Positions 24,156 to 44,745 of a stretch of DNA of 64,000 bases are shown piece by piece. Made by a program: the position numbers and the translations under genes. The notes under the pieces are model-generated. The model saw only the letters and a list, made by a program, of their open reading frames with translations, was not told the origin of the DNA and searched no databases. The stretch is from Elusimicrobiaceae bacterium (GTDB lineage Bacteria; Elusimicrobiota; Elusimicrobia; Elusimicrobiales; Elusimicrobiaceae): positions 1 through 64,000 of the forward strand of contig JAGCWX010000012.1 of NCBI GenBank assembly GCA_017961585.1, read 5' to 3'. Every line of letters starts with the position of its first letter. Within the stretch, counting starts at the first letter, position 1.

Positions 24156-24159
24156 GTCT

Positions 24160-25699: not shown

Positions 25700-25770
25700 A
25701 GTTTTATTTTACTAATTCTAGCAGAAATTGATACAATAAATGAGTAAGTTACTATAAGGAGCATACTATT

Positions 25771-26085: not shown

Positions 26086-26104
26086 TCAAGTACGCTTGTC
26101 AAAG

Positions 26105-26130
26105 GCCCCTGCAAAACAGGGGCTTTTTTT
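26105..26130 (+). terminator. Intrinsic terminator
   Basis: GCCCCTG / CAGGGGC 7-bp stem, CAAAA loop, eight T. Confidence 0.92.
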
Positions 26131-26164
26131 TACAAATAAAAACCCCCGGGATTGACGCCGGGGG
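26131..26164 (-). terminator. Intrinsic terminator, minus strand
   Basis: On the minus strand CCCCCGG and CCGGGGG (+ strand 26143-26149 and 26158-26164) form a stem followed by TTTTTATTTG. It closes the gene at 26208-26834. Confidence 0.85.
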
Positions 26165-26207
26165 AGAGTTTTCGTCTTCCTTCAAGTTGAAAAAAGGCGG
26201 TGCTGTA

Positions 26208-26834
26208 TTAGTAGATAAAACTATTCAAGATTCTTTCATTCTCTGCAGATAAGTTGGCTTTATTTTGTATTAAGTAGCTCATTACATTACCTACGGAAGG
26301 AATAGAATTATTTAAGTAATTAACTAAAGCAGCGCGTTCTTGAAGAGCTTTTTGCTTTTTGTCATTGACACTTGATACCAATTGTTTATATTGGGTGACA
26401 GCTGATATTTGGCTTTCCGTAAAACCATTTGAACTGGCTTTATAGGAATGGATTTGCTCATCTAATCGAGCAAAATATTGCTTTTGTACGTTCACATATT
26501 TAATATATGCAGACGCTACCCCTTCTTCAACCAATTGGTTCGCAATATAATTGGCTTTTGAGCCGGTATATTTATTTTCTTTCAAACCTGTGTTGGTTTT
26601 GGTAGCAAAGGTATCAACAACTTTTTTGAATTGCTGACCGTTAATGGATAATTTCCGCATAACCTGGTCGCCAACTTTCTGAACTGGTTTGGCAGGACTA
26701 TCCTGTTGTACAGCAGTTACTTTTTTAGATACCTGTTCGCTCAAGGCGTTGATTTGATGCCAGGGCGGAATGGGTTGAGCAAAGCACACCGTGCTTATGA
26801 CTAACAGACTTACTGCTATGACTCCTTTTTTCAT
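26208..26834 (-). CDS. Secreted helical protein of unknown function
   Basis: This 208-residue protein has a signal peptide (KKGVIAVSLLVISTVCFAQ, cleavage near residue 20), then PIPPWHQINALSEQVSKKV and a mostly helical body rich in Lys, Gln, Asn and Ser. No cysteine or catalytic motif is visible after the signal. I do not recognise the family. GGAGAT precedes the ATG. Its upstream region carries ATAGGTCC/GGACCTAT inverted repeats and GGGCCTAAA, shared with the promoter regions of the secreted proteins at 2527 and 14503. Confidence 0.75.
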   Translation of the reverse strand: MKKGVIAVSLLVISTVCFAQPIPPWHQINALSEQVSKKVTAVQQDSPAKPVQKVGDQVMRKLSINGQQFKKVVDTFATKTNTGLKENKYTGSKANYIANQLVEEGVASAYIKYVNVQKQYFARLDEQIHSYKASSNGFTESQISAVTQYKQLVSSVNDKKQKALQERAALVNYLNNSIPSVGNVMSYLIQNKANLSAENERILNSFIY

Positions 26835-26918
26835 CTTGTTTATCTCCTTTTTCGCTTAACAAAATCTTGTCCTTCTACCCCTATATTGTATGTATTCCTT
26901 GGTCAATTCACCAGGGTC

Positions 26919-26976
26919 ATAGGTCCTATTTGCTATGCATATTTGGACCTATCTCAAATTTAGGCCCAGTCATTTG
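26919..26976 (-). promoter_or_regulatory. TAGGTCC inverted-repeat element upstream of a secreted-protein gene
   Basis: ATAGGTCC (26919-26926) and GGACCTAT (26945-26952) form an inverted repeat. On the minus strand GGGCCTAAA lies just upstream, in the same order and near-identical spacing (7 against 6 bp) to TAGGTCCAAA as seen before the gene at 2527. Confidence 0.5.
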
Positions 26977-27002
26977 TTTACTTCTCACGACAATTTAAAA
27001 AT

Positions 27003-29879
27003 TTATTTTTCCGAAGGATGTTTTTGTAAGTAGGCAGTTATGGCTTCCAGCTCGGGCTTGAGGTAGCGGCCCGTGTAAGAACCTTTGCACGCAGCCACTT
27101 GCTCTGGGGTTCCTTCGCAAACAATTTGACCGCCCTTATCTCCGCCCTCTGGTCCCAAGTCAATGAGCCAATCGGCTGTTTTGATAACATCTAAATTGTG
27201 CTCAATAATTAAAACAGTATTGCCTTTATCGGCTAAACCGTGTAACACCTGCAACAATTTATCAATATCCGCAAAATGCAGGCCGGTGGTGGGCTCGTCC
27301 AAAATGTATAGCGTATTTCCCGTTCCTTTGCGAGACAGTTCATCCGCTAATTTGACACGTTGAGCTTCGCCGCCCGAAAGAGTGGTAGCCGCTTGGCCCA
27401 GTTTGATATATCCCAATCCCACGTCGTTTAAGGTTTGCAGATAACGTTTGATTTTAGGGATAGCGCCAAAAAACTCAAGCGCTTGGGAAACGCTTAAATC
27501 CAACACATCAGCAATGCTCTTCCCTTTAAATTTTACTTGGAGCGTATCTTCATTAAAACGTTTGCCGTTGCACTCCTCACACTTGACGTAAATATCCGGC
27601 AAAAATTGCATTTGAATTTTTAAAATGCCATCTCCCTGGCATTTTTCGCACCGGCCCCCTTTGACGTTAAAGGAAAACCGGCCCGGCTTATAACCGCGGC
27701 GTTTGGCCTCGGGCATTTGGGCAAACAAATCCCGAATGTGCGAAAATACCCCCGTGTATGTAGCCGGGTTGCTACGCGGAGTTTTACCGATAGGGCTTTG
27801 ATCCACAATAATTACTTTGTCTATATGATTGAGCCCTTTAATCGTTTTATGCGTACCGGGAACTTCTTTGGCATTGTAAAATTCTTGCGCGAGGGCTTTA
27901 TATAATATGTTGTGCACTAATGTACTCTTGCCGGAACCGGATACCCCCGTTACACACACCAATTTGCCTAGCGGAATTTTTACGTCTATATTTTTAAGGT
28001 TAAATTGGCGCGCCCCGCAAATAGTTAAAAATTTTCCGTTCCCTTTGCGTAGCGTAGCGCGCGGCAAAATGATCCGTCGTCCATTTAAGTAGGAAGCCGT
28101 AAGCGAGGTTTTGTTTTTCAAAAAATCACGGGTAGATTGGCTGGCCACAATTTGCCCACCGTTTTCGCCGGCAGCCGGCCCCAATTCCACGACATAGTCT
28201 GAGGCCAAAATAGTGTCTTTATCGTGCTCCACCACAATCAATGTATTATCCAAATCGCGCAAATTTTTCAAGGTATCAATCAAGCGGTCGTTATCGCGCG
28301 AATGAAGGCCAATGGTCGGCTCGTCAAGCACATAAAGCACGCCCGTTAAGCCCGAACCGATTTGCGTAGCCAAGTGAATACGCTGGGCTTCACCCCCGGA
28401 AAGGGTTTGGCTTCTGCGATTTAACGTTAAGTAGGAAAGCCCTACACTGTCCAAAAAATTCAGCCGTGCATTGATTTCTTTCAACACGTCTTTGGCAATT
28501 ATTTTTTCTTTGGCGGTAAGCGTCAAATGTGCAAAAAAATCTTTAGCCGCCGATACTTGCATTGACGTAATTTCGTCAATGTTTTTCCCATTGATTTTAA
28601 CGGCCAACGCTTCGGGCTTTAAGCGTTTGCCTTGGCAAGAAGGGCATTGCACTTCGCGCATAAAACGCTGGGTAACTTCTTCTTTTACAAAATCGCTTTC
28701 CGACTCTGCCACCCGACGCTTTAAGTTGGTAATCACGCCTTCAAATTCTTGTTCCCCGCCGGAAATAATAGAGGTATATGTGGCTCCGCCGGCACCGTAC
28801 AACAGCAAATTACGTTGGGCTTTGGGCAATTTATTCCAAGGAACATTCATTTTAATTTTAGCTTGCCGACACACTTGTTTAAGAATATCGTAATAATACC
28901 CGCTCCAGGAGTTTTTCCAACGGTGCGTACGTGTGGTAACGGGGTTTTCCCAGGCCTCAATAGCACCTTCGTTAATGGAAAGCGTTTCGTCGGGTACCAC
29001 CAGCGTTTCATCCACCTCAATTTTAACACCTAACCCGTTACATTCCGGGCAAGCTCCGTAGGGGGAATTAAAGGAAAACAAACGCGGTTCCAATTCACTA
29101 AATCCAATTCCGCAATGCGCACAAGCATTGGCTTCGCTGTATGTAAAATCAAGCGGGTTTTTCCCTTCCGTTTCCAGGACATGGACCAATCCTTTGCCGT
29201 AACGCAGGGCGGCTTCCAAACTTTCTACCAACCGCTCGCGATCAAATTCTTCTACAAAAATTTCGTCGCAAACAAGCTCAATTGTATGCTTTTTATAACG
29301 GTCCAATACCGGGATAGTATCCACATTAATGACTGTTCCATTTACCCGCGCTTTGACATATCCTTCTTTTTTAAATTTTTTAAACAATTCTTCGTACGTT
29401 CCCTGCCGCCCACGGATTACAGGAGCCAAAATGTACACCGTTTTCTCATTAAATTTGCTTAAAATATCCTGGGAAATACCCTGCACGCTCCAGCTTTGCA
29501 CGGGTCGCCCGCACTGAGGACAATACCGCTGCCCTACCCGGGCAAATAACAAACGTAAATAGTCATAAATTTCAGTTACAGTAGCTACCGTAGAGCGCGG
29601 ATTTTTAGAAGGATTGCGTTGTTCAATAGAAATAGCGGGGGAAAGTCCTTCTATGTGTTCTACATCGGGCTTTTCCATAAGTTCCAAAAATTGCCGTGCA
29701 TAGGCGGACATGCTTTCCACATACCGGCGTTGGCCTTCGGCATAAATTGTATCAAATGCCAACGAGCTCTTACCCGAGCCGGAAAGTCCCGTTACCACCA
29801 CCATCTTTCCCTTGGGGATTTCTACGGATATGTTCTTTAAGTTGTGGCCTTTAGCCCCTATGACTTTGATAGACTTCAT
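27003..29879 (-). CDS. uvrA: UvrABC excinuclease subunit A
   Basis: This 958-residue protein is the ATP-dependent DNA-damage sensor of nucleotide excision repair. It has two ABC modules: Walker [10 protein letters not shown] near residue 31 and GVSGSGKST near 640; signatures [12 protein letters not shown] and [12 protein letters not shown]; and Walker [11 protein letters not shown] and [10 protein letters not shown]. Zinc-finger Cys pairs are visible ([24 protein letters not shown]...CEECNGKR). Length is normal. AAGAGG precedes the ATG. The upstream region to the divergent flippase gene shows no clear LexA box. Confidence 0.98.
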
Positions 29880-29948
29880 GCACTGTAAAACCTCTTAAGC
29901 AATACCCCAGCTAGGCCTAAAACCGCCCGCCGAAGCTTTAATATATTA

Positions 29949-29954
29949 TATAAT
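29949..29954 (+). promoter_or_regulatory. -10 box of the flippase-CA-receiver-TPR operon
   Basis: TATAAT in an AT-rich context, 28 nt before the GTG start. A -35 box is not evident. Confidence 0.5.
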
Positions 29955-29982
29955 TTATTGAATCCACTCTTGGAGAACATGT

Positions 29983-31035
29983 GTGAAAAAACCACTTAAA
30001 TTTGTATTTTATTTTATCGGGATCTTGCTTTCACTCGGAATTTTGGGCATCATGATTTACCAGGCCAAAGACAGCTTTGTTAAAATTTGGCAAGGCGTCC
30101 AAACCCGTTACTTATTCTTAGCTTTATTATCTTCCGCTCTCATTTACATTGCCATGGGAATGAGTCTATACGAGATGCTACGCATCATGGGCCGGCGTAT
30201 CAGCAAAAGCGCCGCGGTAGGGATTGCCCTGGTATCCACCACCGTGAACTATTTAATTTCTTCCCTGGGGGCTAGCGGTTTTGCCTTGCGCGCCCATTTA
30301 TTAAACCGTCGGCATATCCCATTTGGCATGTGTGTTACCGCCAGCATTGTAATTACAGTACTGCTTTATTTCGTCCTGGCAATTATCATTTTGCAAGGAT
30401 CTATTTTGATGTTGATTAATTCTTCAACCACTACCCTACAATTAGCCGAAAATTTTGCCCTCATCGTGGGGATGTGTATCGTATGTGCAATCATTACGGC
30501 CTTTCTCTTTAATGACCAATGGCGCTCCAAGTGGCTACGCAAAGCATTTCGGTTACTTAATAAAATTTTATTTCACGTCTTCCGGGCGTTGATTCCCAAA
30601 GGCCGTTACGATGACTTTATGGATCAGTTAGACGAGGGAATTGATCTGATTCACAAAAAAAAGCGTAAGCTCACCCGCACCGTTGCTTATGTATGTGCGG
30701 ATTGGTTCTTTACCATTATGGTACTGTATTTTGCGTTTTGCGCGGTAGGAATTGATATTTCAGCCGGCGTATTAGTGGCTGGATTTGCCGTCGGAATGGC
30801 AACCACCCTTATTCCTATTTTGCCCAGCGGTTTAGGCGCTATGGAGTTAGCAATGACCGCCGTTTTTAGTCAAATGGGAATTGACTGGGATGCAGCTCTG
30901 ATGGCTACGTTAATTTACCGTGTAGCTTATTACATTATTCCAGGGATTATTAGTATCTTTATTTACTGGGGGCTTCAGTTATCCTCCCCATCCGTACGCC
31001 CGAACAAACATAAACGCCATGGAGCTCACTCATGA
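29983..31035 (+). CDS. LPG-synthase-TM / flippase-like integral membrane protein
   Basis: This 350-residue polytopic protein has about eight to nine helices and matches the lysylphosphatidylglycerol synthase TM-region (UPF0104-like) family. ISSLGASGFALRAHLLNRRHIP, with its Gly-Arg pattern, and LPSGLGAMELAMTAVFSQMG are typical. Members are lipid or undecaprenyl-linked flippase-like proteins; the substrate here is unknown. The start is GTG at 29983 with TTGGAGAAC upstream; the nearby ATG is out of frame. It overlaps the carbonic-anhydrase-like gene by 4 bp. Confidence 0.85.
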   Translation: MKKPLKFVFYFIGILLSLGILGIMIYQAKDSFVKIWQGVQTRYLFLALLSSALIYIAMGMSLYEMLRIMGRRISKSAAVGIALVSTTVNYLISSLGASGFALRAHLLNRRHIPFGMCVTASIVITVLLYFVLAIIILQGSILMLINSSTTTLQLAENFALIVGMCIVCAIITAFLFNDQWRSKWLRKAFRLLNKILFHVFRALIPKGRYDDFMDQLDEGIDLIHKKKRKLTRTVAYVCADWFFTIMVLYFAFCAVGIDISAGVLVAGFAVGMATTLIPILPSGLGAMELAMTAVFSQMGIDWDAALMATLIYRVAYYIIPGIISIFIYWGLQLSSPSVRPNKHKRHGAHS

Positions 31036-31547
31036 TTGAAAAACTTGCACACTTAACGCCAGTGGTACCGTCCAGTTGCTTTGTACATTCTGCTGCGTCA
31101 ATTATCGGGCAAGTGACCTTGGGGGAAAATGTATCGGTTTTTCCAGGAGCTGTGCTCCGTGGAGATATTGCCGCCATCACGGTGGGAAAAAATTCCAATA
31201 TTCAAGACAATGCATGTTTGCATGTCAATTACAACACTCCCTGTGAAATTGGTTGCGCAGTCAGTATTGGACACGGGGCAGTAGTACACGGAAGCAAAAT
31301 TGGGGATAATGTCCTCGTCGGAATGAATGCAGTCATTATGGAAAGTGAAGTGGGTCCCAACTGTATCATCGGGGCGGGGGCCGTTATTCCCGCCGGAAGG
31401 CGCATCCCGGCAGGTTCGCTAGTAATGGGAGTCCCAGGAAAAATTGTCCGTTCTCTAGAGGAAGAAGAAGCAAACGCAATTTTAGACAATGCACGCGAAT
31501 ATGTCCGCGCGATTGCCATCTATAAAAAACAACTTAAAAAATTATGA
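31032..31547 (+). CDS. Gamma-carbonic anhydrase-like hexapeptide-repeat protein
   Basis: This 171-residue left-handed beta-helix belongs to the YrdA/PaaY/CaiE group. Repeats run from about residue 20 to 135 (SIIGQVTLGENVSVFPGAVLRGD...). The three zinc-binding His are present in CLHVNYN and IGHGAVVHG. Typical activity is reversible CO2 hydration, or thioesterase activity in some members. The C-terminal helix RSLEEEEANAILDNAREYV is standard. Translation is coupled at both ends by 4-bp ATGA overlaps to the flippase-like and receiver genes, an unusual combination. Confidence 0.9.
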   Translation: MIEKLAHLTPVVPSSCFVHSAASIIGQVTLGENVSVFPGAVLRGDIAAITVGKNSNIQDNACLHVNYNTPCEIGCAVSIGHGAVVHGSKIGDNVLVGMNAVIMESEVGPNCIIGAGAVIPAGRRIPAGSLVMGVPGKIVRSLEEEEANAILDNAREYVRAIAIYKKQLKKL

Positions 31548-31909
31548 AAAAAATTGTACTCATTGAAGATTCCAAAGTATTGGCCCATGCACTTACCGGT
31601 GCTTTAAAAATTAACAACATAGAAACGCATTGGGCAGATAACGGTGTAGCCGGAGTAACCTTGGCCAAACAACAAAAGCCGGATTTAATTTTACTGGATT
31701 TAATGCTGCCCAAGTTAAGCGGTTTTGACGTGTGCAAACTTCTTAAAACGGACAACGCCACCTGGCGCATCCCGATTGTTATTATGTCTACCCTGGCCGA
31801 TCCTGAATCGCGCCAACGTGCTACTGAAGCCGGGGCCGATTACTTTATTCCAAAACCGTACGATTTACCGTCCACCTTGGCGGAAATTAAAAAAATTTTA
31901 AAAATATAG
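31544..31909 (+). CDS. Stand-alone CheY-like response-regulator receiver
   Basis: The 121 residues form one receiver domain. The acidic pair is in VLIEDSKVL, the phospho-acceptor Asp in LILLDLMLPKLSGFD (about residue 51), Ser/Thr in VIMSTLAD and the conserved Lys in YFIPKPYD. There is no output domain, so it acts by protein contact. It overlaps the gamma-carbonic anhydrase gene and sits 9 bp before a TPR gene, a plausible partner. No histidine kinase is in the window. Confidence 0.95.
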   Translation: MKKIVLIEDSKVLAHALTGALKINNIETHWADNGVAGVTLAKQQKPDLILLDLMLPKLSGFDVCKLLKTDNATWRIPIVIMSTLADPESRQRATEAGADYFIPKPYDLPSTLAEIKKILKI

Positions 31910-31918
31910 GAGGACGCT

Positions 31919-32977
31919 ATGGCCTTTGATTTAGATTATGCAATTGAACTTTTGGAAACGAACGAACCCGTCCAAGCCCTTGGCGAGCTTAAAAAAGCAC
32001 GCAAAAAAGAGGCACAAGTTTTATTTTTAGAAGGGGAAGCTCACCGGCAACTGGGGCATTTTAAAACAGCCCTAAAAACCTATGCTGCCGCGTTAGCTAA
32101 GGCCGACGTTGCCGAAGACCGTATGGACATTCTTTTGGCGATGTCCGCCTGTTACCGGACTTTAGGGCATAGTGCCCCTGCTTATGAATTGGCTTTGGAA
32201 ACCTTGGAAATGGCTAAAGAGCTTGAATATGACGATTACGAAATCCGTGCGATGCAAGAGATGGGAATGTCTCTACGGGCATGGGGAAAATTAGAAGAAG
32301 CACTTGAGTTATTAGACGCAGTTTTGGCGGCTTACGTACAACTCAAAGATTATGCTGGGCAAAGTTTTATTCATTGGGCCAAGGGGGGAATTTTCCGCCT
32401 GCAAGGACATTTTGAAGAAGGTATTTTTCAATTTAAAAAATCCATCACGCTGGCCAAAAATATCGGGGATAAAATCAACGAGGCCTACGGTTATTGTGGC
32501 TTGGCCGGCATCAGCCGTATCTGCGGAAAGATTGATGACTGTGTAAAAAATTACAAATTGGCAGACAAAATTTTTAGACATTCGCAAGACGTATTTGGCA
32601 AGGCCTACACCCATTGCGGTATGGCAAATGGGCTGCGCCAACAGGGCAAGTATGATGAAGCCCTGCGTCATTATAACATGGCAGACAAACTATATTCTCA
32701 AATTGGCGATCAGGTAGACCTGGGGTTTGTAAAATGGGGCCGCGCCGACGTGCTGCGCCGCAAAAACAAATTAGATCTGGCTTTAAAAGATTTACAAGAA
32801 GCCAAGATTTTATTTGATAATTCTGACGAGAAACGCGGGCAAATTTTAACCAAGCTATCGCTGGCGCAAGTGCTCTATGCTTTGGGCTGCACCGACGAAG
32901 CCGAGGCATTTTACGACGCAGGCGTTAAACAAGCCCGTAGTGAAAAGTTACACACGTATTTGGAGAGTTACACCTAA
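31919..32977 (+). CDS. TPR-repeat protein
   Basis: This 352-residue cytosolic protein has about eight tetratricopeptide repeats. These include the 40-residue Rapsyn/LGN-like units (residues about 190-330) with INEAYGYCGLAGISRICGKI, KAYTHCGMANGLRQQGKYDEAL and DLGFVKWGRADVLRRKNKLDLAL. Such units bind partner proteins. Position and spacing (AGGAGG start site, 9 bp after the receiver) suggest it works with the receiver protein. It ends 2 bp before the convergent mutY stop with no terminator between. Confidence 0.9.
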   Translation: MAFDLDYAIELLETNEPVQALGELKKARKKEAQVLFLEGEAHRQLGHFKTALKTYAAALAKADVAEDRMDILLAMSACYRTLGHSAPAYELALETLEMAKELEYDDYEIRAMQEMGMSLRAWGKLEEALELLDAVLAAYVQLKDYAGQSFIHWAKGGIFRLQGHFEEGIFQFKKSITLAKNIGDKINEAYGYCGLAGISRICGKIDDCVKNYKLADKIFRHSQDVFGKAYTHCGMANGLRQQGKYDEALRHYNMADKLYSQIGDQVDLGFVKWGRADVLRRKNKLDLALKDLQEAKILFDNSDEKRGQILTKLSLAQVLYALGCTDEAEAFYDAGVKQARSEKLHTYLESYT

Positions 32978-32979
32978 GG

Positions 32980-34002
32980 TTATACTTGTTCCAATAACTT
33001 TTGTACCAGGCGGGGAATTGCATACCCGCCTATTTTTTGGGTAGACACTTTGATAAACCCACTTGCCACCGGATGAGAGGGGGGAAGAACTACCTTATAC
33101 AAGCGGGCATAAATAACTTGGTGGGAAAGCACGTGTTTAACCGGAGTTTTAGAAATTTGTTGCAACGGCACCGCCCCAAACCATTTCTTAAGCTGAGGAT
33201 ATTTAAAAGACAAAACGTCCGATTGGGTTTCTATCAAGGGGAGCTCATATAAATTCTGCCACACATCCCCTGCACCACGCCGATGCAACCAAGTAGATTT
33301 TCCTTGCACTACATATATATAGTGGAAATAACGCGTGGAAATTTTAGTTTTTTGGCTTTTTACAGGGAAATTCATCTGAGTACCGGTTTTGCGTGCTTGG
33401 CACATTTTAGACAGGGGGCATCCCTCGCACAAAGGGGTTTGCGGCGTACATACCATGGCCCCCAGGTCCATGAGGGCTTGGTTATAATCGCCGGGATGTT
33501 TTACGTCTAATAAATCTTGGGCCAAGGCAGAAAACTGTTTCTTCCCATCGGTAGAATCAATCGGGGTGGAAATCCCCAATACCCGTGATAGTACTCGGTA
33601 TACATTCCCGTCCACCACCGCGTACGGCATATCGTAAGCAATTGAACAAATAGCAGCCGCCGTGTAATCGCCCACCCCCTTCAAGGATCGAACCTCTTGG
33701 TAGGTCTTAGGAAATGTCCCTTTCATACTCTTGGCGGCTGCATGCAAATTGCGCGCCCGGGAGTAATACCCCAACCCTTGCCATAATTTGAGCACTTGGT
33801 CCTCGCTGGCCTGCGCCAAAGCCCGAGGGGAGGGGAATTTTTCCACAAACCGGTTGTAATAGGCCAATCCCTGGGCTACACGGGTTTGCTGCATGATGAT
33901 CTCACAAAGCCAAATCTTATATGGGTCTTTGGTCCGCCGCCAGGGTAAGTCGCGTTTATGAATTTTGTACCAGGCCAAAAGGGGGGAGGAAAAAGATTTC
34001 AT
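32980..34002 (-). CDS. mutY: A/G-specific adenine glycosylase
   Basis: This 340-residue enzyme removes adenine mispaired with 8-oxoguanine. Visible are the entry PWRRTKDPYKIWLCEIIMQQT with catalytic Glu, the helix-hairpin-helix LKGVGDYTAAAI, the catalytic Asp in AVVDGNVYRVL, and the [4Fe-4S] loop C-x6-C-x2-C-x5-C (CTPQTPLC, EGC, PLSKMC). A NUDIX-like C-terminal domain follows. The ATG lies 6 nt after a minus-strand TACAAT (+ strand ATTGTA at 34009-34014) with no ribosome-binding site, so it is probably leaderless. Confidence 0.96.
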   Translation of the reverse strand: MKSFSSPLLAWYKIHKRDLPWRRTKDPYKIWLCEIIMQQTRVAQGLAYYNRFVEKFPSPRALAQASEDQVLKLWQGLGYYSRARNLHAAAKSMKGTFPKTYQEVRSLKGVGDYTAAAICSIAYDMPYAVVDGNVYRVLSRVLGISTPIDSTDGKKQFSALAQDLLDVKHPGDYNQALMDLGAMVCTPQTPLCEGCPLSKMCQARKTGTQMNFPVKSQKTKISTRYFHYIYVVQGKSTWLHRRGAGDVWQNLYELPLIETQSDVLSFKYPQLKKWFGAVPLQQISKTPVKHVLSHQVIYARLYKVVLPPSHPVASGFIKVSTQKIGGYAIPRLVQKLLEQV

Positions 34003-34333
34003 AGTTTTATTGTACTATTTTAGCATTTCAAAGTTCCCGCAAATTTACAAGCGATTTTGCATTTTTGAAAAAACAAGCAAAAACGAACGATATCAATTCC
34101 CTACAACTTAGCGCTCCAAAAAATCTAACAATGGCACTAAACTTCATTTTTTGGCCTCAATTTTGCAAAAAATTTAACAAAAGACCTTAAATTTTAGGGG
34201 CAACCGAGCCGAATCCTTCGTCGGAAAACAGGGGTTATCAACCGGGTATGACATATAATTAACATATATGACATATCTATTGACATAAAATTAAAAATTA
34301 GTTACTATATGTCTATAGCTGGGGATAACCCCT
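34003..34333. other. 331-bp AT-rich intergenic region with short repeats
   Basis: No gene is seen. Contents are the leaderless mutY promoter at the left edge, a TGGCACTAAAC copy near 34133 that recurs near 35239, the left arm of a 12-bp inverted repeat (34228-34239), three TGACATA repeats (near 34248, 34269 and 34281), and the promoter of the next gene. The mutY promoter aside, everything recognisable lies in the right-hand 110 bp. Confidence 0.6.
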
Positions 34334-34335
34334 GT
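34228..34335 (+). promoter_or_regulatory. Promoter bracketed by a perfect 12-bp inverted repeat
   Basis: TTGACA (34280-34285), 17 bp, TACTAT (34303-34308) is a good sigma70-type promoter. ACAGGGGTTATC (34228-34239) and its exact complement GATAACCCCTGT (34324-34335) flank it, and the right arm covers the GTG start. GGGG-ATAA-CCCC (34321-34332) can also fold as a hairpin over the start. TGACATA repeats lie between. The layout suggests autoregulation by looping or translational masking (inference). Confidence 0.6.
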
Positions 34336-34927
34336 GGAAAACGTAGCCAATTTAATAGTAAACTTTATGAACAATAGCATGGACAAAGAAACACTAAAAA
34401 TGCGATTTAAACTCCCCAATGGAGAAGAATTTGAAGCCCAGGGCCCGCAAGAATTTATTGAGGCCCAGCGTAATTATTTTCTAGCTTTAATTGGCCAGCA
34501 AACACTCACTGCTCCCAGCAGTCGTTTGCCCAATACACCGTCACAATCCGATCGTCCGGTTCCTCATTTCTTTGCCGCGGCCAACTCACGGGCCGCACAA
34601 GTTTCCCCATGGGAGCGCCTTTTCCGAGTGCAGGAACACACACTTGTATTGCGCCGGAAAGCCAAAATTTCGCCTCAAGATACCGCTATTCTTATTTTAG
34701 CGGCAGCCCGGGACATCTTCAAGCAAAGCGCCTATAGCGCTCTAGAGTTATCCCGCTCTCTCAAAGCCCTAGGCATTGAGGGGGGGCGATTGGACCGTTT
34801 GTTGGTGGGGGAAATACAAGCCGGCCGAATGACAGCCCAAGGTTCCAAAAGAGGCCGCACTTATCAATTGAGCAATGAGGGACTAGCCCATGCTTTTGTG
34901 CTAGCCCACAAATTATTGGGAGAATAA
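34334..34927 (+). CDS. Unknown protein with probable C-terminal winged helix, beside dif
   Basis: This protein has 197 residues from GTG at 34334; an ATG at 34367 is an alternative, and neither has a good ribosome-binding site. The N-terminal part (MRFKLPNGEEFEAQGP) could be a small beta unit, then there is a Pro-Ser linker. The C-terminal 75 residues (AILILAAARDIFKQS, SALELSRSLKALGI, LDRLLVGEIQAGRM, GSKRGRTYQLSNEG) have the helix-helix-wing pattern of a winged-helix DNA-binding domain with a basic wing. I do not recognise the family. Its location 163 bp from the dif-like site and its bracketed promoter suggest a terminus-linked or self-regulating DNA-binding protein (inference). Confidence 0.65.
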   Translation: MENVANLIVNFMNNSMDKETLKMRFKLPNGEEFEAQGPQEFIEAQRNYFLALIGQQTLTAPSSRLPNTPSQSDRPVPHFFAAANSRAAQVSPWERLFRVQEHTLVLRRKAKISPQDTAILILAAARDIFKQSAYSALELSRSLKALGIEGGRLDRLLVGEIQAGRMTAQGSKRGRTYQLSNEGLAHAFVLAHKLLGE

Positions 34928-35089
34928 CCTCCCCTTTTTCAAAAAATCAATATTTCAAGTAGAAAATATATAAATTAAAAAATATTTATATTTTAAGCAT
35001 TTTTATTTTTGCATATTTTCTTAATATTTACAGGATAAAATTTTACAAATAAATATGGCCCGGGGGGACTATTTGTCTTTATATATTTA

Positions 35090-35117
35090 ACTAACGAGAA
35101 TATATATTATGTTAATT
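35090..35117 (+). other. dif: Candidate dif site for XerCD chromosome-dimer resolution
   Basis: The 28 bp read left arm ACTAACGAGAA, centre TATATA, right arm TTATGTTAATT. From memory, the B. subtilis dif arms are ACTTCCTAGAA and TTATGTAAACT with the same centre (23 of 28 identical). The right arm differs from E. coli dif (TTATGTTAAAT) at one base. The flip of G-run polarity exactly here supports the assignment. Confidence 0.85.
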
Positions 35118-35780: not shown

Positions 35781-36491
35781 TTACTTTTGTTTTTCCTTTA
35801 CTTTCATACGGTCCGTCAATATTTTCTCGATCCCTCCTTTATCCAAATTGGATTGTTTGGGATCTACATTATCCAAATTTGCGGTATTACTCTTACCCAA
35901 CAAACTCGATGCCGCTGCAGAATCTTTTTCGGCTTGGTTGCTGTTGGTATTTCCCAAGTCCATACTCCCCCCACCCAACGGAGCTGCTTTTTCTGCGGGC
36001 TTATTAAAGCTTTTGGCTTGTGGGGGTCTATAATCGCTCATACTACCTCCGCCGCGCGATTGAGACGAAGATTCGGCCGCTGTTCCTTTCGCCGGACTTC
36101 CGCCCGCACTTGCGGTTGTGTTAGCCGTTGCAAACGAAGACGTTTGTGGATGTATTACGGTCACCGTAGTTTGCGGGTGAGTAACCACCGTCTGCGTAGT
36201 AGGATGCTCTACTTTTGACGTTGTGGTAGGATGAATAACCGCTGTCTGCGTGGTGGGATGCGTCACCACTCCCGTAGTTTGGGGATGAGTTACCGCTACC
36301 TGCGTTTTGGGATGAAGCACTTGAGAAGAAGTTGTTGGGTGCAAAACGCTTCCTTGTGTCGTTGGATGAACAACCACCTGCGTAGTACTAGGATGCATCG
36401 GTTGGCCCGGCATCAGTGTAGGCGGCGTCTTTGCCGTCGCACAAACACAAAGCCCTCCCAATAAAATTGTTGTTCCCAAAATCGCTTTCAT
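35781..36491 (-). CDS. Secreted protein with a 9-residue HPTT tandem repeat
   Basis: This 236-residue protein has a signal peptide (KAILGTTILLGGLCVCATA, cleavage near residue 20). Ten near-perfect 9-residue repeats (residues about 32-120) follow, with consensus HPTTQxxVx: HPTTQVVV, HPTTQGSVL, HPKTQVAVT, HPTTQTAVI and so on. His-Pro recurs every ninth residue. The second half is low-complexity, Ser/Gly/Ala-rich, with a basic end. No family is recognised. The repeat could form a regular beta or extended rod, and the spaced His could bind metal (inference). It lies 9 bp after the protein at 36501-37022 in a strong operon. Confidence 0.8.
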   Translation of the reverse strand: MKAILGTTILLGGLCVCATAKTPPTLMPGQPMHPSTTQVVVHPTTQGSVLHPTTSSQVLHPKTQVAVTHPQTTGVVTHPTTQTAVIHPTTTSKVEHPTTQTVVTHPQTTVTVIHPQTSSFATANTTASAGGSPAKGTAAESSSQSRGGGSMSDYRPPQAKSFNKPAEKAAPLGGGSMDLGNTNSNQAEKDSAAASSLLGKSNTANLDNVDPKQSNLDKGGIEKILTDRMKVKEKQK

Positions 36492-36500
36492 AACAATTCC

Positions 36501-37022
36501 TTATTTTTTAGCAGGAGCAGCAGCCGGTGCCGCAGCCCCCCCCATTAAGTTGGATAAATCGGGCATCCCTGGAATTGCGGGCATTCCCGCGGGATTACCG
36601 CCGGCAGGTTGTCCCCCCGCTTGATTCATCATTTGCATCATTCCCTGTACCTGTTGCATCATGGCCGCTGGGTCAGCATTGGCCGGCATTGCCGCAGGCG
36701 TTTGCTGCGTAGAAGGTTTGGGAGCAACTGCCGGTTTAGCAGGTTTAGGTTCCGCAGCGGCCTTTTTAGATACAGAAGGAGTTTCCGGTTTTTTTGTAAA
36801 ATCGATTACCGTTTCCCCGGCTACCGAAGTCTCCACCCCTTGGGTTTGGACCCCCTGGTTCCAACCGCGGTTGCTGTAATTGGTAAAAGCACGGGCATTG
36901 GCCGGCTGTGCCGGTTGTTGTTGGTTACTACCAAAATTGGGGCGCCCTTGCGGCCCGGCTTGATACGCGGCTGCCGGCAACGCCATAACAGCAATTAACA
37001 AAAAACATGCACAAGATTTCAT
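36501..37022 (-). CDS. Secreted Pro/Ala/Gln/Met-rich low-complexity protein
   Basis: This 173-residue protein has a signal peptide (KSCACFLLIAVMALPAAA, cleavage near residue 19). An NQ-rich segment, a Lys-Pro-Ala linker (EPKPAKPAVAPKPS) and a Met-Gln-Gly-Pro tail (MMQQVQGMMQMMNQAGG, GNPAGMPAIPGMP) follow, ending KK. There is no globular domain. It is first in an operon with the HPTT-repeat protein and is driven by the best promoter seen in the window, so both are likely abundant envelope or surface components. The role is unknown. Confidence 0.78.
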   Translation of the reverse strand: MKSCACFLLIAVMALPAAAYQAGPQGRPNFGSNQQQPAQPANARAFTNYSNRGWNQGVQTQGVETSVAGETVIDFTKKPETPSVSKKAAAEPKPAKPAVAPKPSTQQTPAAMPANADPAAMMQQVQGMMQMMNQAGGQPAGGNPAGMPAIPGMPDLSNLMGGAAAPAAAPAKK

Positions 37023-37052
37023 AATAAATCCCCCTTTTTAGTGATCTTTAAT

Positions 37053-37081
37053 AGTATAGTGCTGTGAAGGGAAATTGTCAA
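37053..37081 (-). promoter_or_regulatory. Strong sigma70-type promoter
   Basis: On the minus strand: TTGACA (37076-37081), exactly 17 bp, TATACT (37053-37058). It drives the two secreted low-complexity proteins. Confidence 0.85.
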
Positions 37082-37184
37082 GGGGGATTTCTATTGATTT
37101 TTTTCATTATGACTCTACTCACCAGGTAAATATTTTCGTATAGAATCCCCCTCCTTTACCCACTTTTTGCCTCGCCATAAATGC

Positions 37185-37199
37185 TATAATAAAGATATG
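37185..37199 (+). promoter_or_regulatory. Leaderless promoter of cdsA: TGC-TATAAT then 6 nt then ATG
   Basis: Extended -10 (TGC before TATAAT at 37185-37190), then AAAGAT, then the ATG at 37197. It heads the cdsA-proS cluster. Confidence 0.7.
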
Positions 37200-38027
37200 C
37201 TATTACCTAGAATATTAACGGCCTTAATTGGCATCCCTTTAATCATTGCGGCCATTCATTTGGGTGGCCTAGTTTACATGGTTTTTGTCGGCTGTGTGAT
37301 TTTGCTTTGTCTTTATGAATACAGCTTGGTTTTAACGGCAGGAAAACGCCCCGTACATACGCTTTCCCTCATACTATGGGGGTTACTAATGGGTGCGGTG
37401 GCCTTGTTGGGACACATCCACCCAGAAGGGCTCTCCTTGCCAGACAATCTCTACCCGTTGGCTATTAGTGCCGTCCTGGTAGGGGTACTTGTGTTTGAAG
37501 TATTAACCCCCAAACGTAGTTGGGAACGTGTGTGCAATACCTTTATGGGCGTATTTTTAATTCCCTGGTCTCTAGCACACTTAATTAACTTACGAGACAT
37601 CCCCACCTACGGCGAATATTTGACCTTGTTTATGATTATTACCGTGTGGGTAAGCGATACGGGTGCTTATTTTTCGGGCCGTTTTTTGGGCAGACACAAA
37701 CTCAACAAAGAGGTCAGCCCCAAGAAAACCTGGGAAGGTGCCATCGGCGGGACCTTGCTGGCCGTAGCGGGAGCCGTCGTAATGCGCAACTTGTTTTTAA
37801 GTTCCCTTTTTACAGTAAAAACGGCCATTTGGCTGGGGCTATTGGTAGCCGTTATCGGGCAACTTTCCGACTTGGCCGAATCGGTCATCAAACGTTCTAC
37901 CGGGGTAAAAGATTCCTCCAACTTACTGCCGGGACACGGTGGTTTTTTGGACCGTTTTGATTCTTATTTGCTTTTGGCCCCTGTATTTTACTACGTCGTG
38001 ATTTACACGTTTAATGTTTCGTTATGA
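37197..38027 (+). CDS. cdsA: Phosphatidate cytidylyltransferase (CDP-diglyceride synthase)
   Basis: This 276-residue polytopic inner-membrane enzyme makes CDP-diacylglycerol from phosphatidic acid and CTP, the precursor of all phospholipids. The family signature S-x-x-KR-x-x-x-x-KD-...-PGHGG-x-LDRFDS is visible at the end (SVIKRSTGVKDSSNLLPGHG, then GFLDRFDS). The frame runs 10 codons further upstream, but the TATAAT box at 37185 lies inside that extension and the ATG at 37197 is 6 nt after it. The stop overlaps dxr by 4 bp. Confidence 0.96.
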   Translation: MLLPRILTALIGIPLIIAAIHLGGLVYMVFVGCVILLCLYEYSLVLTAGKRPVHTLSLILWGLLMGAVALLGHIHPEGLSLPDNLYPLAISAVLVGVLVFEVLTPKRSWERVCNTFMGVFLIPWSLAHLINLRDIPTYGEYLTLFMIITVWVSDTGAYFSGRFLGRHKLNKEVSPKKTWEGAIGGTLLAVAGAVVMRNLFLSSLFTVKTAIWLGLLVAVIGQLSDLAESVIKRSTGVKDSSNLLPGHGGFLDRFDSYLLLAPVFYYVVIYTFNVSL

Positions 38028-39223
38028 AAAATATTGTTATTTTAGGTTCTACGGGCTCTATTGGCACTTCGGCACTGGATGTTATTCACCGTTTAGGTAA
38101 TCAGTACCAAGTATTGGCACTTTCAGCGAACAACAATACCGATTTGTTTTTGAAACAAATTCATACGTTTCACCCACGCTTTGCCGCCGTACTAAACCCG
38201 ATCTCATACGACAAATTAAAAGATCAAATGCCGCAAGGCACACGCCTTCTTCCGCCGGAAATTGACAGCTTGATGTTTATCGCGTCTTTACCGTCGGCGG
38301 ATTTGATTGTCAATGGCCTAGTAGGGGCGGTCGGATTTCGCCCTTTGGTGGCAGCGATTAAAGCAGGTAAGACCATTGCATTGGCCAATAAAGAACCCAT
38401 GGTTATGGCTGGCAAAACACTCATGCAGGAATGCGAACGCTGGCAAGCCGCTATCTTGCCGGTAGACAGCGAACCTTCTGCCATTTTTCAATGCCTTAGC
38501 GGGTTAGCAGGCAAAAATAATTACGCTAAAATTTCAGACGATATTTCCCGTATTTTTTTAACTGCTTCCGGCGGACCGTTCGCCAAGTATGAAGGCCCTT
38601 TAGATGAGGTAACCCCGGCGCAAGCCCTCAATCATCCGCGTTGGAAAATGGGCAAAAAAATTACCATTGATTCTTCCACGTTAATGAACAAAGGTTTTGA
38701 GGCCATTGAAATCATGAATCTGTTCAATGTGCCCGAAGAAAAAGTGCAAATTGTCATTCATCCGCAATCTATTGTCCATTCTGCGGTGGAATTTAATGAC
38801 GGGGCCATCTTGGCCCAAATGGGCGAACCCGATATGCGTGTCCCCATTCAGTATGCTATTACTTACCCGCAACGCGCCATCAGCCCGGTTAAGAAATTAG
38901 ACCTTTTTGAAACGGCCAAACTGGAATTTTTCAAACCGGACTTAGAACGTTTTGTATGTTTGGATTTGGCCCTAGCGGCAGCCCGTTCCGGGGGGATTAC
39001 TCCCGCCGTATTAAGTGCCGCAGATGAAATAGCAGTGCAAGCATTTTTAGATGGTAAAATTAAATTTACGGATATTTCCAAGCTCATCTATACCACCCTT
39101 CGCAAAGTGCCCTCTACCGGAGGAATTGCTACCATTAACCAAGCCCTGGAAGCCGATACCTGGGCCCGTGAAGAAGCTTCCGCTATTTTAAACGAAGGTA
39201 CCTACAAAGACGCTGTTTTATAG
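38024..39223 (+). CDS. dxr: 1-deoxy-D-xylulose-5-phosphate reductoisomerase
   Basis: This 399-residue enzyme of the MEP isoprenoid pathway converts DXP to MEP using NADPH. NADPH-binding ILGSTGSIGTSALDV is at the N-terminus. Metal and substrate motifs are ILPVDSEPSAIFQC (about residue 145), TASGGPFAKYEG, NHPRWKMGKKITIDSSTLMNKG and IHPQSIVHSAVEFNDGA. Length and motifs are normal. It is translationally coupled to cdsA by ATGA. Followed after 7 bp by rseP, as in many bacteria. Confidence 0.98.
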   Translation: MKNIVILGSTGSIGTSALDVIHRLGNQYQVLALSANNNTDLFLKQIHTFHPRFAAVLNPISYDKLKDQMPQGTRLLPPEIDSLMFIASLPSADLIVNGLVGAVGFRPLVAAIKAGKTIALANKEPMVMAGKTLMQECERWQAAILPVDSEPSAIFQCLSGLAGKNNYAKISDDISRIFLTASGGPFAKYEGPLDEVTPAQALNHPRWKMGKKITIDSSTLMNKGFEAIEIMNLFNVPEEKVQIVIHPQSIVHSAVEFNDGAILAQMGEPDMRVPIQYAITYPQRAISPVKKLDLFETAKLEFFKPDLERFVCLDLALAAARSGGITPAVLSAADEIAVQAFLDGKIKFTDISKLIYTTLRKVPSTGGIATINQALEADTWAREEASAILNEGTYKDAVL

Positions 39224-39230
39224 GAGGAAT

Positions 39231-40397
39231 ATGTTGTTATCTATTTTGGCTGTACTGGTTGTATTAAGCCCCATTGTAATTATTCACGAATTTGGGCACT
39301 TTTTAGCTTGCCGTCTTACCGGTATCCGTGTGAATGAATTTTCATTCGGGTTTGGTAAAATTTTGTGGCACAAGAAGAAAGGCGATACGGATTACCAAAT
39401 TCGCGCCATTCCTTTTGGCGGATTTGTAGAACCGGCCGGCCCTATGTTTCACCCCGAAGATGCCAAAGAACCACCCAAGCCCTACGAATTTGCCGCCAAA
39501 CCTTGGTATTCCAAATTTTTTATGGTTGTCAACGGGGCTTTGTTTAACTACGTATTGGCAGCCGTTATTTTTGGGGTGCTTATTTTTGTACAAGGCCGCC
39601 CACAAACAGACCCCGCCTTATTACCGGCCGTCGTCGGAAGTGTAAGCAAAGATTATCCGGCCGCACATCTAGACCTGCAACCTGGGGACACGATTACTTC
39701 CTTAAACGGGAAACCCGTTTCCAATTGGCAGGATTTAATGGATTTATTGCAAGCGCGCACCGGGGATTTGACACTCAATTATACGCGCGAAATATCCTGT
39801 AGCGAAATCGGCATGAGATGCTATCATCCGAACCAGAAACTTCCTCGCACTTTAACCGCCACGGTCGAAGCCAGTGATTTTAATCCGAAAGCCCCCAAAA
39901 CTTTAGGGGTTACTGTAATGCCCGCGTACGAAAAAGTATCGTGGTGGAAAGCCATTGGATACGGCGCTTATGAGTGCTATTATTGGACGGCCTATTCTCT
40001 AAAATCCATCGGGCAAAGCTTTGCCAAGAAAAAAGCCCCTGAGTTGGCCGGCCCCATTGGGATTGTAAACATTATTCACCAAGTAGCTCACCGCAATTTG
40101 TTGGATTTTATTTCCCTGATTGCCATGTTATCCGTGGCGGTAGGGATGTTTAACTTGTTCCCCATTCCGATACTAGACGGCGGCTACGCTCTGGTATATT
40201 TATGGGAAGGGCTTACCCACAAACTACCCACGCAAAAAACACTTGGAAAGGCAGCTAACGTCGGTCTAGCGCTGCTGGCAATGCTGGTACTGTATGCTTC
40301 GTACTCGGACATTAAACGCATTTTCTTTAAGCCCAAAACAGTTGCTGTGGAAACGACTCAAACTACCCCTCAAGAGGAACCCCATGTACAAGACTAG
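39231..40397 (+). CDS. rseP: Site-2 metalloprotease RseP
   Basis: This 388-residue inner-membrane zinc protease cleaves membrane-embedded segments such as anti-sigma factors and signal-peptide remnants. HEFGH (residues 19-23) is the zinc site, and NLFPIPILDGG near residue 310 supplies the third ligand. A single PDZ domain (about residues 120-215) lies between, with PGDTITSLNGKPV. It has an unusual Cys-containing insertion, ISCSEIGMRCYHPNQK, inside the PDZ region. AGGAGG precedes the ATG. The end overlaps ispG by 14 bp. Confidence 0.96.
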   Translation: MLLSILAVLVVLSPIVIIHEFGHFLACRLTGIRVNEFSFGFGKILWHKKKGDTDYQIRAIPFGGFVEPAGPMFHPEDAKEPPKPYEFAAKPWYSKFFMVVNGALFNYVLAAVIFGVLIFVQGRPQTDPALLPAVVGSVSKDYPAAHLDLQPGDTITSLNGKPVSNWQDLMDLLQARTGDLTLNYTREISCSEIGMRCYHPNQKLPRTLTATVEASDFNPKAPKTLGVTVMPAYEKVSWWKAIGYGAYECYYWTAYSLKSIGQSFAKKKAPELAGPIGIVNIIHQVAHRNLLDFISLIAMLSVAVGMFNLFPIPILDGGYALVYLWEGLTHKLPTQKTLGKAANVGLALLAMLVLYASYSDIKRIFFKPKTVAVETTQTTPQEEPHVQD

Positions 40398-41472
40398 AGA
40401 AGTAAAAGTAGGCCCTTTTACCTTGGGAACCAGGCACCCAGTGCGCGTGCAAAGCATGTGCAATACCGACACGCGCGATGCAGTTAAAACAGCTTCTCAA
40501 ATTTGCATTTTGGAAGAAGCAGGTTGTGAAATTAACCGTGTGGCCGTGCCCGATATGCAAGCCGCACAAGCCATCGGGGAAATTAAAAAACGCATCCACT
40601 CCCCCCTCGTGGCGGACATCCATTTTGATTACAAATTAGCGCTGGAGGCCATCAAACAAGGCGTGGATAAAGTGCGCATCAACCCCGGCAACATTGGCGC
40701 CGTGGAAAACACCAAAGAAGTGGTACGCGCGGCATTGGATCACGGGGTAGCTATCCGTATCGGCGTGAATGCCGGCAGTGTTAAATACTTAAAAAGCGTA
40801 CAAGGGCGCATGGAACTATCCGACGAAAAATGGGCCGAAATCATGGTCAATGAAGCCCTGGAACAAGCCAACATTTTAGAACAACTAAATTTCAAAAATG
40901 TAGTTGTGTCGCTCAAATCGGATAACTTTAAACGCACCGTGCTGGCCAACGAACTTTTTGCCAAACAAAGCGATATTCCCTTGCACATTGGGCTCACCGA
41001 AGCGGGCAGCTTTTTAAGCGGCACCGTTAAAAGCTCCGTGGCACTGGGGACTTTACTTCAAAAAGGGATTGGTGCCACGATTCGCGTTTCGTTGACGGAA
41101 GACCCGCGTATGCAGGTGCGCACTGCGTATGAAATTTTAAAGGCCTTGGGGCTGCGCGAATATGGCCCTAATTTAATTTCTTGCCCCACGTGTGGCCGTA
41201 CCCAAGTGGACGTAACTGGGACCGTTCACACCCTGGAAGAAAAGATTTACGCCAGCAAAGAATTGCGCGAAAAAGCCACCGGGCTTAAAATTGCCGTGAT
41301 GGGCTGCATTGTAAACGGCCCCGGCGAAGCGCGCGATGCCGACTTTGGCATTGCCGGCGGGAAAGGCGAAGGCCTATATTTTGAACACGGGCGGACCATG
41401 TTCAAACTCCCCCAAGAAAAATGGGTAGAATTTTTACTGGATAAAATTAACACGTGGGAGAAAGTAAAATGA
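40384..41472 (+). CDS. ispG: 4-hydroxy-3-methylbut-2-enyl diphosphate synthase
   Basis: This 362-residue [4Fe-4S] enzyme converts MEcPP to HMBPP in the MEP pathway. Visible are VRVQSMCNTDTRDAV near residue 20, ADIHFDYKLAL, RINPGNIG, the cluster cysteines in ISCPTCGRTQ (about residue 265) and GCIVNGPGEA (about 305). The frame extends 30 codons upstream within rseP, but AGAGGAA precedes the ATG at 40384 and the family starts MYKTREVKVG, so the short form is used. Confidence 0.97.
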   Translation: MYKTREVKVGPFTLGTRHPVRVQSMCNTDTRDAVKTASQICILEEAGCEINRVAVPDMQAAQAIGEIKKRIHSPLVADIHFDYKLALEAIKQGVDKVRINPGNIGAVENTKEVVRAALDHGVAIRIGVNAGSVKYLKSVQGRMELSDEKWAEIMVNEALEQANILEQLNFKNVVVSLKSDNFKRTVLANELFAKQSDIPLHIGLTEAGSFLSGTVKSSVALGTLLQKGIGATIRVSLTEDPRMQVRTAYEILKALGLREYGPNLISCPTCGRTQVDVTGTVHTLEEKIYASKELREKATGLKIAVMGCIVNGPGEARDADFGIAGGKGEGLYFEHGRTMFKLPQEKWVEFLLDKINTWEKVK

Positions 41473-41912
41473 AAAAATTATTCATTTTTATTATAACGAC
41501 GGTTTTATTGGGAGCATGTATAACAACCAATTCTAAAAATGAGACAACAGCTACGGCCAAACCGAAGCCCACTTATCGTAAATATAACATTCCCAACTCT
41601 ACCAATAAAGCCATCGAAGGGTTAGAAGGTTGTACGAAGGAATTTGCTTTTAATGTAATGGGTATTCCCACTAGAGAAAAAATCATTGACGGGAAGAAAT
41701 ACTTTGAATGGAGCATAAGGAATGCTTCTTGTATCGTAGATGCTAATGTTAACGACGAAGGTATCATAGAAAACATCTATTATCAAGATACAAGAAACGA
41801 ATGCGAACATATGTACCTACGTATTGTAAATTATTACAGAAAGAACCCGGCTCAAAGCGAACAAACGTGCCCTAATCGTACCGATTTACAAGGAAATCAT
41901 TATAATAAATAA
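41469..41912 (+). CDS. Lipoprotein of unknown function inserted between ispG and proS
   Basis: This 147-residue protein has a lipoprotein signal (FIFIITTVLLGACITT, lipidated Cys near residue 16), a Thr/Lys linker, and a small domain with four or five cysteines (GCTKEFAF, ASCIVDA, NECEHMY, EQTCPN) that may form disulfides. The segment KEFAFNVMGIPTREKIIDGKKYFEW recalls the BamE/SmpA-type fold (start of a helix then GxPxxxxxxDGxxxW), a tentative assignment. The ATG overlaps the ispG stop. Its codon use looks more AT-rich than its neighbours, suggesting a later insertion into an old cluster. Confidence 0.8.
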   Translation: MKKLFIFIITTVLLGACITTNSKNETTATAKPKPTYRKYNIPNSTNKAIEGLEGCTKEFAFNVMGIPTREKIIDGKKYFEWSIRNASCIVDANVNDEGIIENIYYQDTRNECEHMYLRIVNYYRKNPAQSEQTCPNRTDLQGNHYNK

Positions 41913-41922
41913 GGACTAAACT

Positions 41923-43647: not shown

Positions 43648-43662
43648 TTCCTCTTTTGACAT

Positions 43663-43691
43663 AAAAAGCCCCGCATCAAGCGGGGCTTTTT
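43663..43691. terminator. Bidirectional terminator between proS and ldh
   Basis: A 12-bp perfect stem (AAAAAGCCCCGC / GCGGGGCTTTTT) with a 5-nt loop. Confidence 0.95.
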
Positions 43692-43707
43692 GATTCACCG
43701 CAATTTC

Positions 43708-44667: not shown

Positions 44668-44687
44668 ACGTTTTCCCTCCTTCTTAT

Positions 44688-44693: not shown

Positions 44694-44698
44694 GAAAA

Positions 44699-44728: not shown

Positions 44729-44745
44729 AATTAGTTTAAGTTTAT

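What the first reader, a model, noticed from the sequence alone, without database searches (positions are those of the whole stretch)
35090..35117. Candidate dif site marks the replication terminus
The 28-bp sequence (arms ACTAACGAGAA and TTATGTTAATT around TATATA) matches my recollection of B. subtilis dif at 23 of 28 positions and the E. coli XerD arm at 10 of 11. It lies in an 833-bp gene-free AT-rich region, as dif sites often do. dif may not have been annotated in this lineage.
Basis: partly seen in the sequence, partly recalled or inferred. Interest (0 to 1): 0.8.

Follow-up and report, generated by a model that had tools for sequence, protein, structure and literature searches.

The report
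Chromosome-dimer resolution site with linked gene
This is the single spot (dif) where an Elusimicrobium-type gut bacterium untangles linked chromosome copies. It is an ordinary site in itself, but a DNA motif points at it from both sides, it lies about 100-170 kb from the apparent end of replication in relatives, and an unknown DNA-binding-protein gene sits beside it across the class.

Summary
Window 35090-35117 is almost certainly dif of an Elusimicrobium-type bacterium (Elusimicrobiota). It occurs once in the genome, even with 3 mismatches. Close versions occur in 110 of 149 genomes of the order. XerC, XerD and FtsK are encoded elsewhere in the genome. A dif in Elusimicrobia was predicted before (Kono 2011), so the site itself is a known kind.

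In four relatives with long contigs, GC skew switches 105-166 kb (6-10% of the genome) away, always on the XerC-arm side; in the complete relative the switch is near the point opposite dnaA. The window has no skew switch.

Three findings look new. (1) GGGGGGA is strand-polarised toward dif (368:2 in seven genomes) and flips within about 1 kb of it in the best-resolved genomes, not at the GC-skew switch: a candidate FtsK-orienting sequence (KOPS). (2) A single-copy winged-helix protein gene without a Pfam or NCBIfam name (34367-34927) lies just upstream of dif, pointing at it: 102 of 104 genomes have both on one contig, all in that orientation, 99 within 2 kb. (3) A GGGGGG..TATTTGTC element precedes dif. 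Function is inferred.

The parts
35090..35117 (+). dif site: XerC arm 35090-35100 (ACTAACGAGAA), spacer 35101-35106 (TATATA), XerD arm 35107-35117 (TTATGTTAATT)
   Evidence: Unique in genome; order/class-wide conservation; GGGGGGA polarity switch at this point
35062..35077 (+). Conserved dif-proximal element GGGGGGA.TATTTGTC, about 13-28 bp 5' of the XerC arm; it contains the last dif-pointing GGGGGGA
   Evidence: In 35 dif loci (34 of family f1 including G082 and G083, one of f2): G-run in 33, TTTG-type core in 33; columns -25 to -23 G in 32-34, -17 T in 34, -16 T in 32
34367..34927 (+). Gene for a 186-aa protein with a predicted C-terminal winged helix, no Pfam/NCBIfam/PHROGs name, conserved beside dif and transcribed toward it (an alternative GTG start lies at 34334)
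   Evidence: 102/104 genomes on the same contig as dif, all same order and orientation, 99 within 2 kb; AlphaFold pLDDT about 95 over residues 80-186; MarR-like fold matches; no family hits
34249..34287 (+). Promoter region of that gene with TGACATA repeats at 34249, 34269 and 34281 (candidate autoregulatory operators)
   Evidence: TGACATA/TATGTCA present upstream in 39 of 45 orthologues, usually 2-6 copies, against 0.02-0.035 expected per 250 bp
444..35068 (+). Left of dif: 13 GGGGGGA on + (444, 3586, 7027, 15629, 18724, 19536, 22147, 24413, 25265, 32383, 33079, 33981, 35062), none on -
   Evidence: window Fisher exact p = 2.7e-6
35966..63599 (-). Right of dif: 11 GGGGGGA on - (35966, 36612, 40600, 45417, 46987, 50962, 53221, 53626, 59451, 60962, 63593), one exception on + at 38990
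   Evidence: best change point in the contig lies between 0.0 and 0.9 kb from dif

Best explanation
The 28-mer is the chromosomal dif of an Elusimicrobium-type bacterium. XerC and XerD bind the two arms and resolve chromosome dimers when FtsK, steered along the DNA by the polar motif GGGGGGA, arrives from both sides. Shown by computation: the site, its uniqueness and conservation, presence of xerC/xerD/ftsK, and convergence of the polar motif on it. Inferred: that GGGGGGA is read by FtsK-gamma, that XerCD bind and recombine here, and that replication forks normally meet elsewhere (about 100-170 kb away on the XerC-arm side), so that the site marks where segregation ends rather than where replication ends. 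Also inferred, with less confidence: the winged-helix protein encoded next door binds DNA at its own promoter and perhaps at the GGGGGG..TATTTGTC element beside dif, as an accessory or terminus-organising factor.
For: Unique in own genome. Found in 110/149 genomes of the order and, with XerD arm TTATGTTACAT, in other families of the class. XerC-like (topA-xerC-ROK, C14), XerD-like (C27) and FtsK with a gamma-like C-terminus (C25) present. GGGGGGA 368 toward: 2 away, the most polarised of 6,769 7-mer pairs with >=100 copies, equally in sense, antisense and intergenic positions. Optimal change points per genome contain or touch dif: -0.4..0.3, -0.4..0.7, -0.2..0.6, 0.0..0.9 kb and wider. Density rises from 0.5 to 4.5 per 10 kb toward dif. 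Held-out family f2: 47:5 within 20 kb of dif. Own genome: in the six other contigs with at least 3 listed copies, 97 of 99 lie on the contig's majority strand.
Against: GC skew does not switch at dif. Both Xer proteins score slightly below the curated XerC/XerD cut-offs (325 vs 335; 304 vs 330 bits), although above the general NF001399 tyrosine-recombinase cut-off. XerD's C-terminal FtsK-contact residues (RQ-QQ in E. coli, per PMC5357621) do not look conserved by eye (not formally tested). Nothing was tested in the laboratory.
Confidence: 0.95

Rival explanations
1. The site is dif and also the replication terminus; GC skew is just noisy here.
For: dif and the skew switch coincide in most bacteria: mean distance 13 kb (PMC6199493); outliers within 3% of the genome in Proteobacteria/Firmicutes (PMC3025954).
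Against: In four genomes of three genera the skew change point lies 105, 162, 166 and 106 kb from dif (bootstrap intervals exclude dif; log-likelihood gain 32-49) and always on the same side. In the complete relative it lies near the point opposite dnaA (about 812 against 823 kb) while dif is at 917 kb.
Confidence: 0.1
2. The polar GGGGGGA is a Chi-like recombination signal or a by-product of coding or leading-strand bias, not an FtsK-orienting sequence.
For: Chi sites and G-rich words are also leading-strand biased in many bacteria (general knowledge).
Against: Leading-strand signals should flip at the GC-skew switch; this flips at dif, 100-170 kb away: 167:0 in the zone between, where G/C skew is opposite. 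Polarity is equal in sense, antisense and intergenic positions. Density rises toward dif, a defining property of AIMS that Chi lacks (PMC5993296).
Confidence: 0.1
3. The 28-mer is a Xer site of a mobile element (IMEX or plasmid pdif-like) rather than the chromosomal dif.
For: dif-like sites with GC-rich spacers occur at boundaries of repeated sequences in family f2 genomes.
Against: Unique, conserved through the genus with the same neighbouring gene, no element boundary seen, chromosome-wide motif convergence.
Confidence: 0.02
4. The linked winged-helix gene is only a passive neighbour kept by slow rearrangement near dif and has nothing to do with it.
For: Rearrangements are constrained near termini (PMC5993296); in three family-f1 genomes the gene is 2-12 kb from dif and in G082 on another contig.
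Against: Of 37 window ORFs tested, mutY and other close neighbours are shared near dif only within the genus, whereas this gene is near dif in every f1 and f2 genome tested (in G083 12 kb away) and in other families of the class. Strand order is 102/102. Where the first dif pattern had missed, a variant dif lay about 65-160 bp downstream of the gene in three of five class genomes.
Confidence: 0.35

Closest known systems
dif/XerCD of B. subtilis and E. coli; predicted dif of Elusimicrobia (Kono et al. 2011)
   Same: 28-bp layout 11-6-11, unique in the genome, XerC/XerD/FtsK encoded; 23/28 to B. subtilis dif
   Different: Displaced 105-166 kb from the GC-skew switch in relatives; flanked by a conserved G-run/TATTTGTC element and a linked winged-helix gene
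KOPS (GGGNAGGG, E. coli/Vibrio), SRS (B. subtilis), AIMS
   Same: Short, G-rich, points to dif on both arms, density rises toward dif
   Different: Sequence is GGGGGGA; GGGNAGGG itself is not polarised between the skew switch and dif here (41:42); polarity is nearly absolute (368:2) and is decoupled from GC skew
P. aeruginosa PAO1-UW, where segregation but not replication terminates at dif (PMC6199493)
   Same: dif displaced from the expected meeting point of the forks
   Different: There, and in the genomes surveyed in that paper, GC skew switched near dif; here it switches near the point opposite the origin and away from dif. The asymmetry there is an inversion in one strain, here it is shared by three genera
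xerS-difSL of streptococci/lactococci and xerH-difH of epsilonproteobacteria (linkage from my own knowledge)
   Same: A gene conserved immediately beside dif
   Different: There the linked gene is the recombinase itself; here it is a non-recombinase winged-helix protein, and xerC/xerD lie on other contigs
MatP/matS terminus organiser of enterobacteria
   Same: Idea of a DNA-binding protein dedicated to the dif region
   Different: No matS-like GTGACNNNGTCAC in 2.2 Mb sampled; TGACATATGTCA occurs at the gene's promoter only

Membership tests
chromosomal dif | 28-bp 11-6-11 site matching known dif | tested here: met
   23/28 to B. subtilis dif; order-wide homologues
chromosomal dif | One copy per chromosome | tested here: met
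   One in G000 at <=3 mismatches
chromosomal dif | Cognate XerC and XerD present | tested here: met
   Two Xer-type recombinases, best hits XerC and XerD, slightly under the equivalog cut-offs but over NF001399
chromosomal dif | FtsK-orienting polar sequences converge on it | tested here: met
   GGGGGGA switch at dif in seven genomes; that FtsK reads it is not shown
chromosomal dif | Lies at or near the GC-skew switch (usual, not strictly defining: displaced dif sites are known) | tested here: inconclusive
   No switch in the window's contig and own genome too fragmented to place it; in four relatives the switch is 105-166 kb away
chromosomal dif | XerCD binding and recombination | not testable with these tools
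   Needs biochemistry
KOPS/AIMS | Strand bias toward dif | tested here: met
   368:2; held-out f2 47:5
KOPS/AIMS | Abundance rises toward the terminus/dif | tested here: met
   0.5 to 4.5 per 10 kb
KOPS/AIMS | Recognised by FtsK-gamma | not testable with these tools
   gamma-like C-terminus present in FtsK; binding untested
winged-helix (MarR-like) DNA-binding protein | Winged-helix fold | tested here: met
   Predicted residues 96-186, Z 9-11 to several winged-helix proteins, most at 2-3 A rmsd; Foldseek best E 3e-3; a shared fold shows no function
MatP/matS | matS sites (GTGACRNYGTCAC) around dif | tested here: not met
   0 of GTGACNNNGTCAC in 2.2 Mb sampled

The most novel reading that the evidence does not exclude
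Class Elusimicrobia carries a dedicated dif-bound protein: the linked winged-helix protein binds its own promoter repeats and the G-run/TATTTGTC element beside dif, and controls Xer recombination or anchors dif at the septum, in chromosomes where segregation (FtsK/GGGGGGA/dif) and replication termination have been pulled 100-170 kb apart.
Probability: 0.3. Interest if true: 0.85.

Novelty: new variant of a known kind. Interest (0 to 1): 0.58.

Why it matters
It separates two things that usually coincide: where replication ends (GC-skew switch) and where segregation ends (dif plus the FtsK-orienting motif). A published survey concluded that skew switches near dif even in asymmetric genomes; this lineage looks like an exception shared by three genera, so causes of GC skew can be tested against those of KOPS polarity. 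It also offers a candidate KOPS for Elusimicrobiota and a conserved protein family with no named function whose gene marks dif across a class.

Tried and rejected
GC skew as the test of the site in the window itself: uninformative, no switch in the 78.5-kb contig. GGGNAGGG, GAGAAGGG and GAAGAAG as the polar motif: weak or inconsistent. Extra dif-like hits in G055 C12: they overlap the N-terminal coding sequence of pilin genes, a chance match. A first degenerate 8-mer scan was invalid because reverse masks were missing; it was redone correctly. matS-like sites: none. Phage or plasmid origin of the linked protein: no PHROGs family, no tblastn hit. PDB sequence search of the linked family: only E 0.95 noise. 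No relative of its N-terminal hairpin-helix part appeared, but that part was not folded and searched alone.

Full report
Organism. The window is bases 1-64000 of contig C32 (78,550 bp) of a 1.49-Mb, 36-contig, 98% complete assembly. Genomes holding nearly the same site are Elusimicrobium-type MAGs, many from ruminant, horse and other animal gut samples, so the lineage is Elusimicrobiota, class Elusimicrobia.

The site. ACTAACGAGAATATATATTATGTTAATT at 35090-35117 is unique in the genome and has no chance expectation in the window. In the order, 110 of 149 genomes carry ACTNACGATAA-N6-TTATGTTAAYT within two mismatches. Across 33 dif loci positions 2, 3, 7, 8, 10-12 and 17-25 never vary, while the spacer does. 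In other families of the class the XerD arm ends TTATGTTACAT or similar. Only two of the sampled genomes outside the class matched the pattern. XerC-like, XerD-like and FtsK genes are present on contigs C14, C27 and C25. Kono et al. (PMC3025954) already predicted dif in the one Elusimicrobia genome they had; its sequence is not in the text I could read, so identity with this site is not verified.

Not the replication terminus. In the window and the rest of C32, skew is weakly negative on both sides of dif. In relatives sampled along long contigs and turned so that XerC arm to XerD arm runs left to right, the skew change point is at -105 kb (G083), -162 kb (G047), -166 kb (G057) and -106 kb (G104), with bootstrap intervals that exclude dif; the zone between switch and dif has weaker but same-signed skew as beyond dif. 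Two further genomes sampled more thinly agree in direction (G050; G044, with the switch beyond the sampled end). In G083 the switch (about 812 kb) is near the point opposite dnaA (823 kb), and dif is at 917 kb. The published survey found skew switching near dif even in asymmetric genomes (PMC6199493), so this lineage appears to differ.

A polar motif that does switch at dif. Over 2.16 Mb from seven genomes, GGGGGGA is oriented toward dif 368 times and away twice, the most extreme of 6,769 7-mer pairs with at least 100 copies; the split is the same for sense, antisense and intergenic copies. In the zone between the skew switch and dif, where G is the rarer base on that strand, it is 167:0. The best change point, computed per genome, is within -0.4 to +0.3 kb in G047, -0.2 to +0.6 in G044, -0.4 to +0.7 in G057, 0.0 to +0.9 in the window's contig, and wider intervals that contain dif elsewhere. 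Density rises from 0.5 to 4.5 per 10 kb toward dif. Because the motif was chosen using dif-oriented sequence, two checks matter: family f2, not used in the choice, gives 47:5 within 20 kb of dif, and in the own genome the other contigs listed are each nearly uniform in strand, for example 62 of 62 on C5 and 16 of 17 on C14 (only the first 100 of 263 places are listed). The p-values assume independent copies, and related genomes are not independent; the argument does not rest on them. I read GGGGGGA as the KOPS of this lineage; recognition by FtsK is inferred.

A linked gene. The ORF at 34367-34927 has no Pfam, NCBIfam or PHROGs family. Its profile finds the family in 148 of 295 genomes sampled across the phylum, usually one match each (some matches are split in two), all of those listed within the class. 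Of 104 genomes in which both it and dif were located, 102 have both on one contig; in all 102 the gene is on the XerC-arm side and points at dif; the gap is at most 2 kb in 99 and the median is 289 bp (the table was typed). Exceptions: G083 at 12 kb, G103 at 6 kb, G092 at 2.2 kb; G082 and G283 have them on different contigs. In class genomes where the first pattern had missed dif, a variant dif lies shortly after the gene in G289, G316 and G282, not found for G297 and G304. Other close neighbours, such as mutY, are shared near dif only within the genus. The model has a confident C-terminal winged helix similar to MarR-type and archaeal winged-helix proteins; the N-terminal part was not tested alone.

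Candidate DNA targets. Upstream of the gene, TGACATA/TATGTCA occurs in 39 of 45 orthologues, usually 2-6 copies, against 0.02-0.035 per 250 bp in background; in families f7/f8 the repeats are sparse or absent. The full palindrome TGACATATGTCA was seen only at this promoter in the sampled genomes. Just 5' of dif lies a conserved GGGGGG..TATTTGTC element; in G083, where the gene lies 12 kb away, TATTTGTCA is still beside dif, so the element stays with dif. Its partial resemblance to TATATGTCA suggests, but does not show, that the linked protein binds there.

Verdict. dif: about 0.95. Separation of dif from the skew switch in relatives: well supported; in the window's own genome it is inferred because the assembly is fragmented. 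KOPS role of GGGGGGA: likely. Function of the linked protein: open.

Noticed in passing
G032:C9/C35, G027:C4, G029:C5, G139:C40/C41 (L209-L212, L214, L215), family f2 genomes: Several dif-like sites per genome with GC-rich spacers (for example ACTAACGATAACCGGCCTTATGTTTACT) preceded by a G-run; in pairs from one genome the left flank is conserved and the right flank diverges soon after the site, as at the end of an inserted element. Possible Xer-exploiting mobile elements.
   Followed up: partly
G023:C2:2617-3145 (L213): Two inverted dif-like sites 0.5 kb apart around a small helix-turn-helix gene, next to an integrase and phage-like genes; looks like a prophage region.
   Followed up: no
window 35118-35150: Short inverted repeat GCGTGTAAAAATCAATTTTTACGCAC just 3' of the XerD arm; not obviously conserved in relatives.
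   Followed up: no
window 35784-36491 (-) and 36504-37022 (-): Two adjacent ORFs with no Pfam or NCBIfam hit on the XerD side of dif, recognisable only in part of the genus.
   Followed up: no
window 38990: The only GGGGGGA in the window that points away from dif; also the only exception in contig C32.
   Followed up: no
window 34310-34345 and orthologous promoters: Sequences like GTGGATAAC/GTGGAAAAC recur just upstream of the linked gene in the genus, resembling DnaA boxes (recollection).
   Followed up: no
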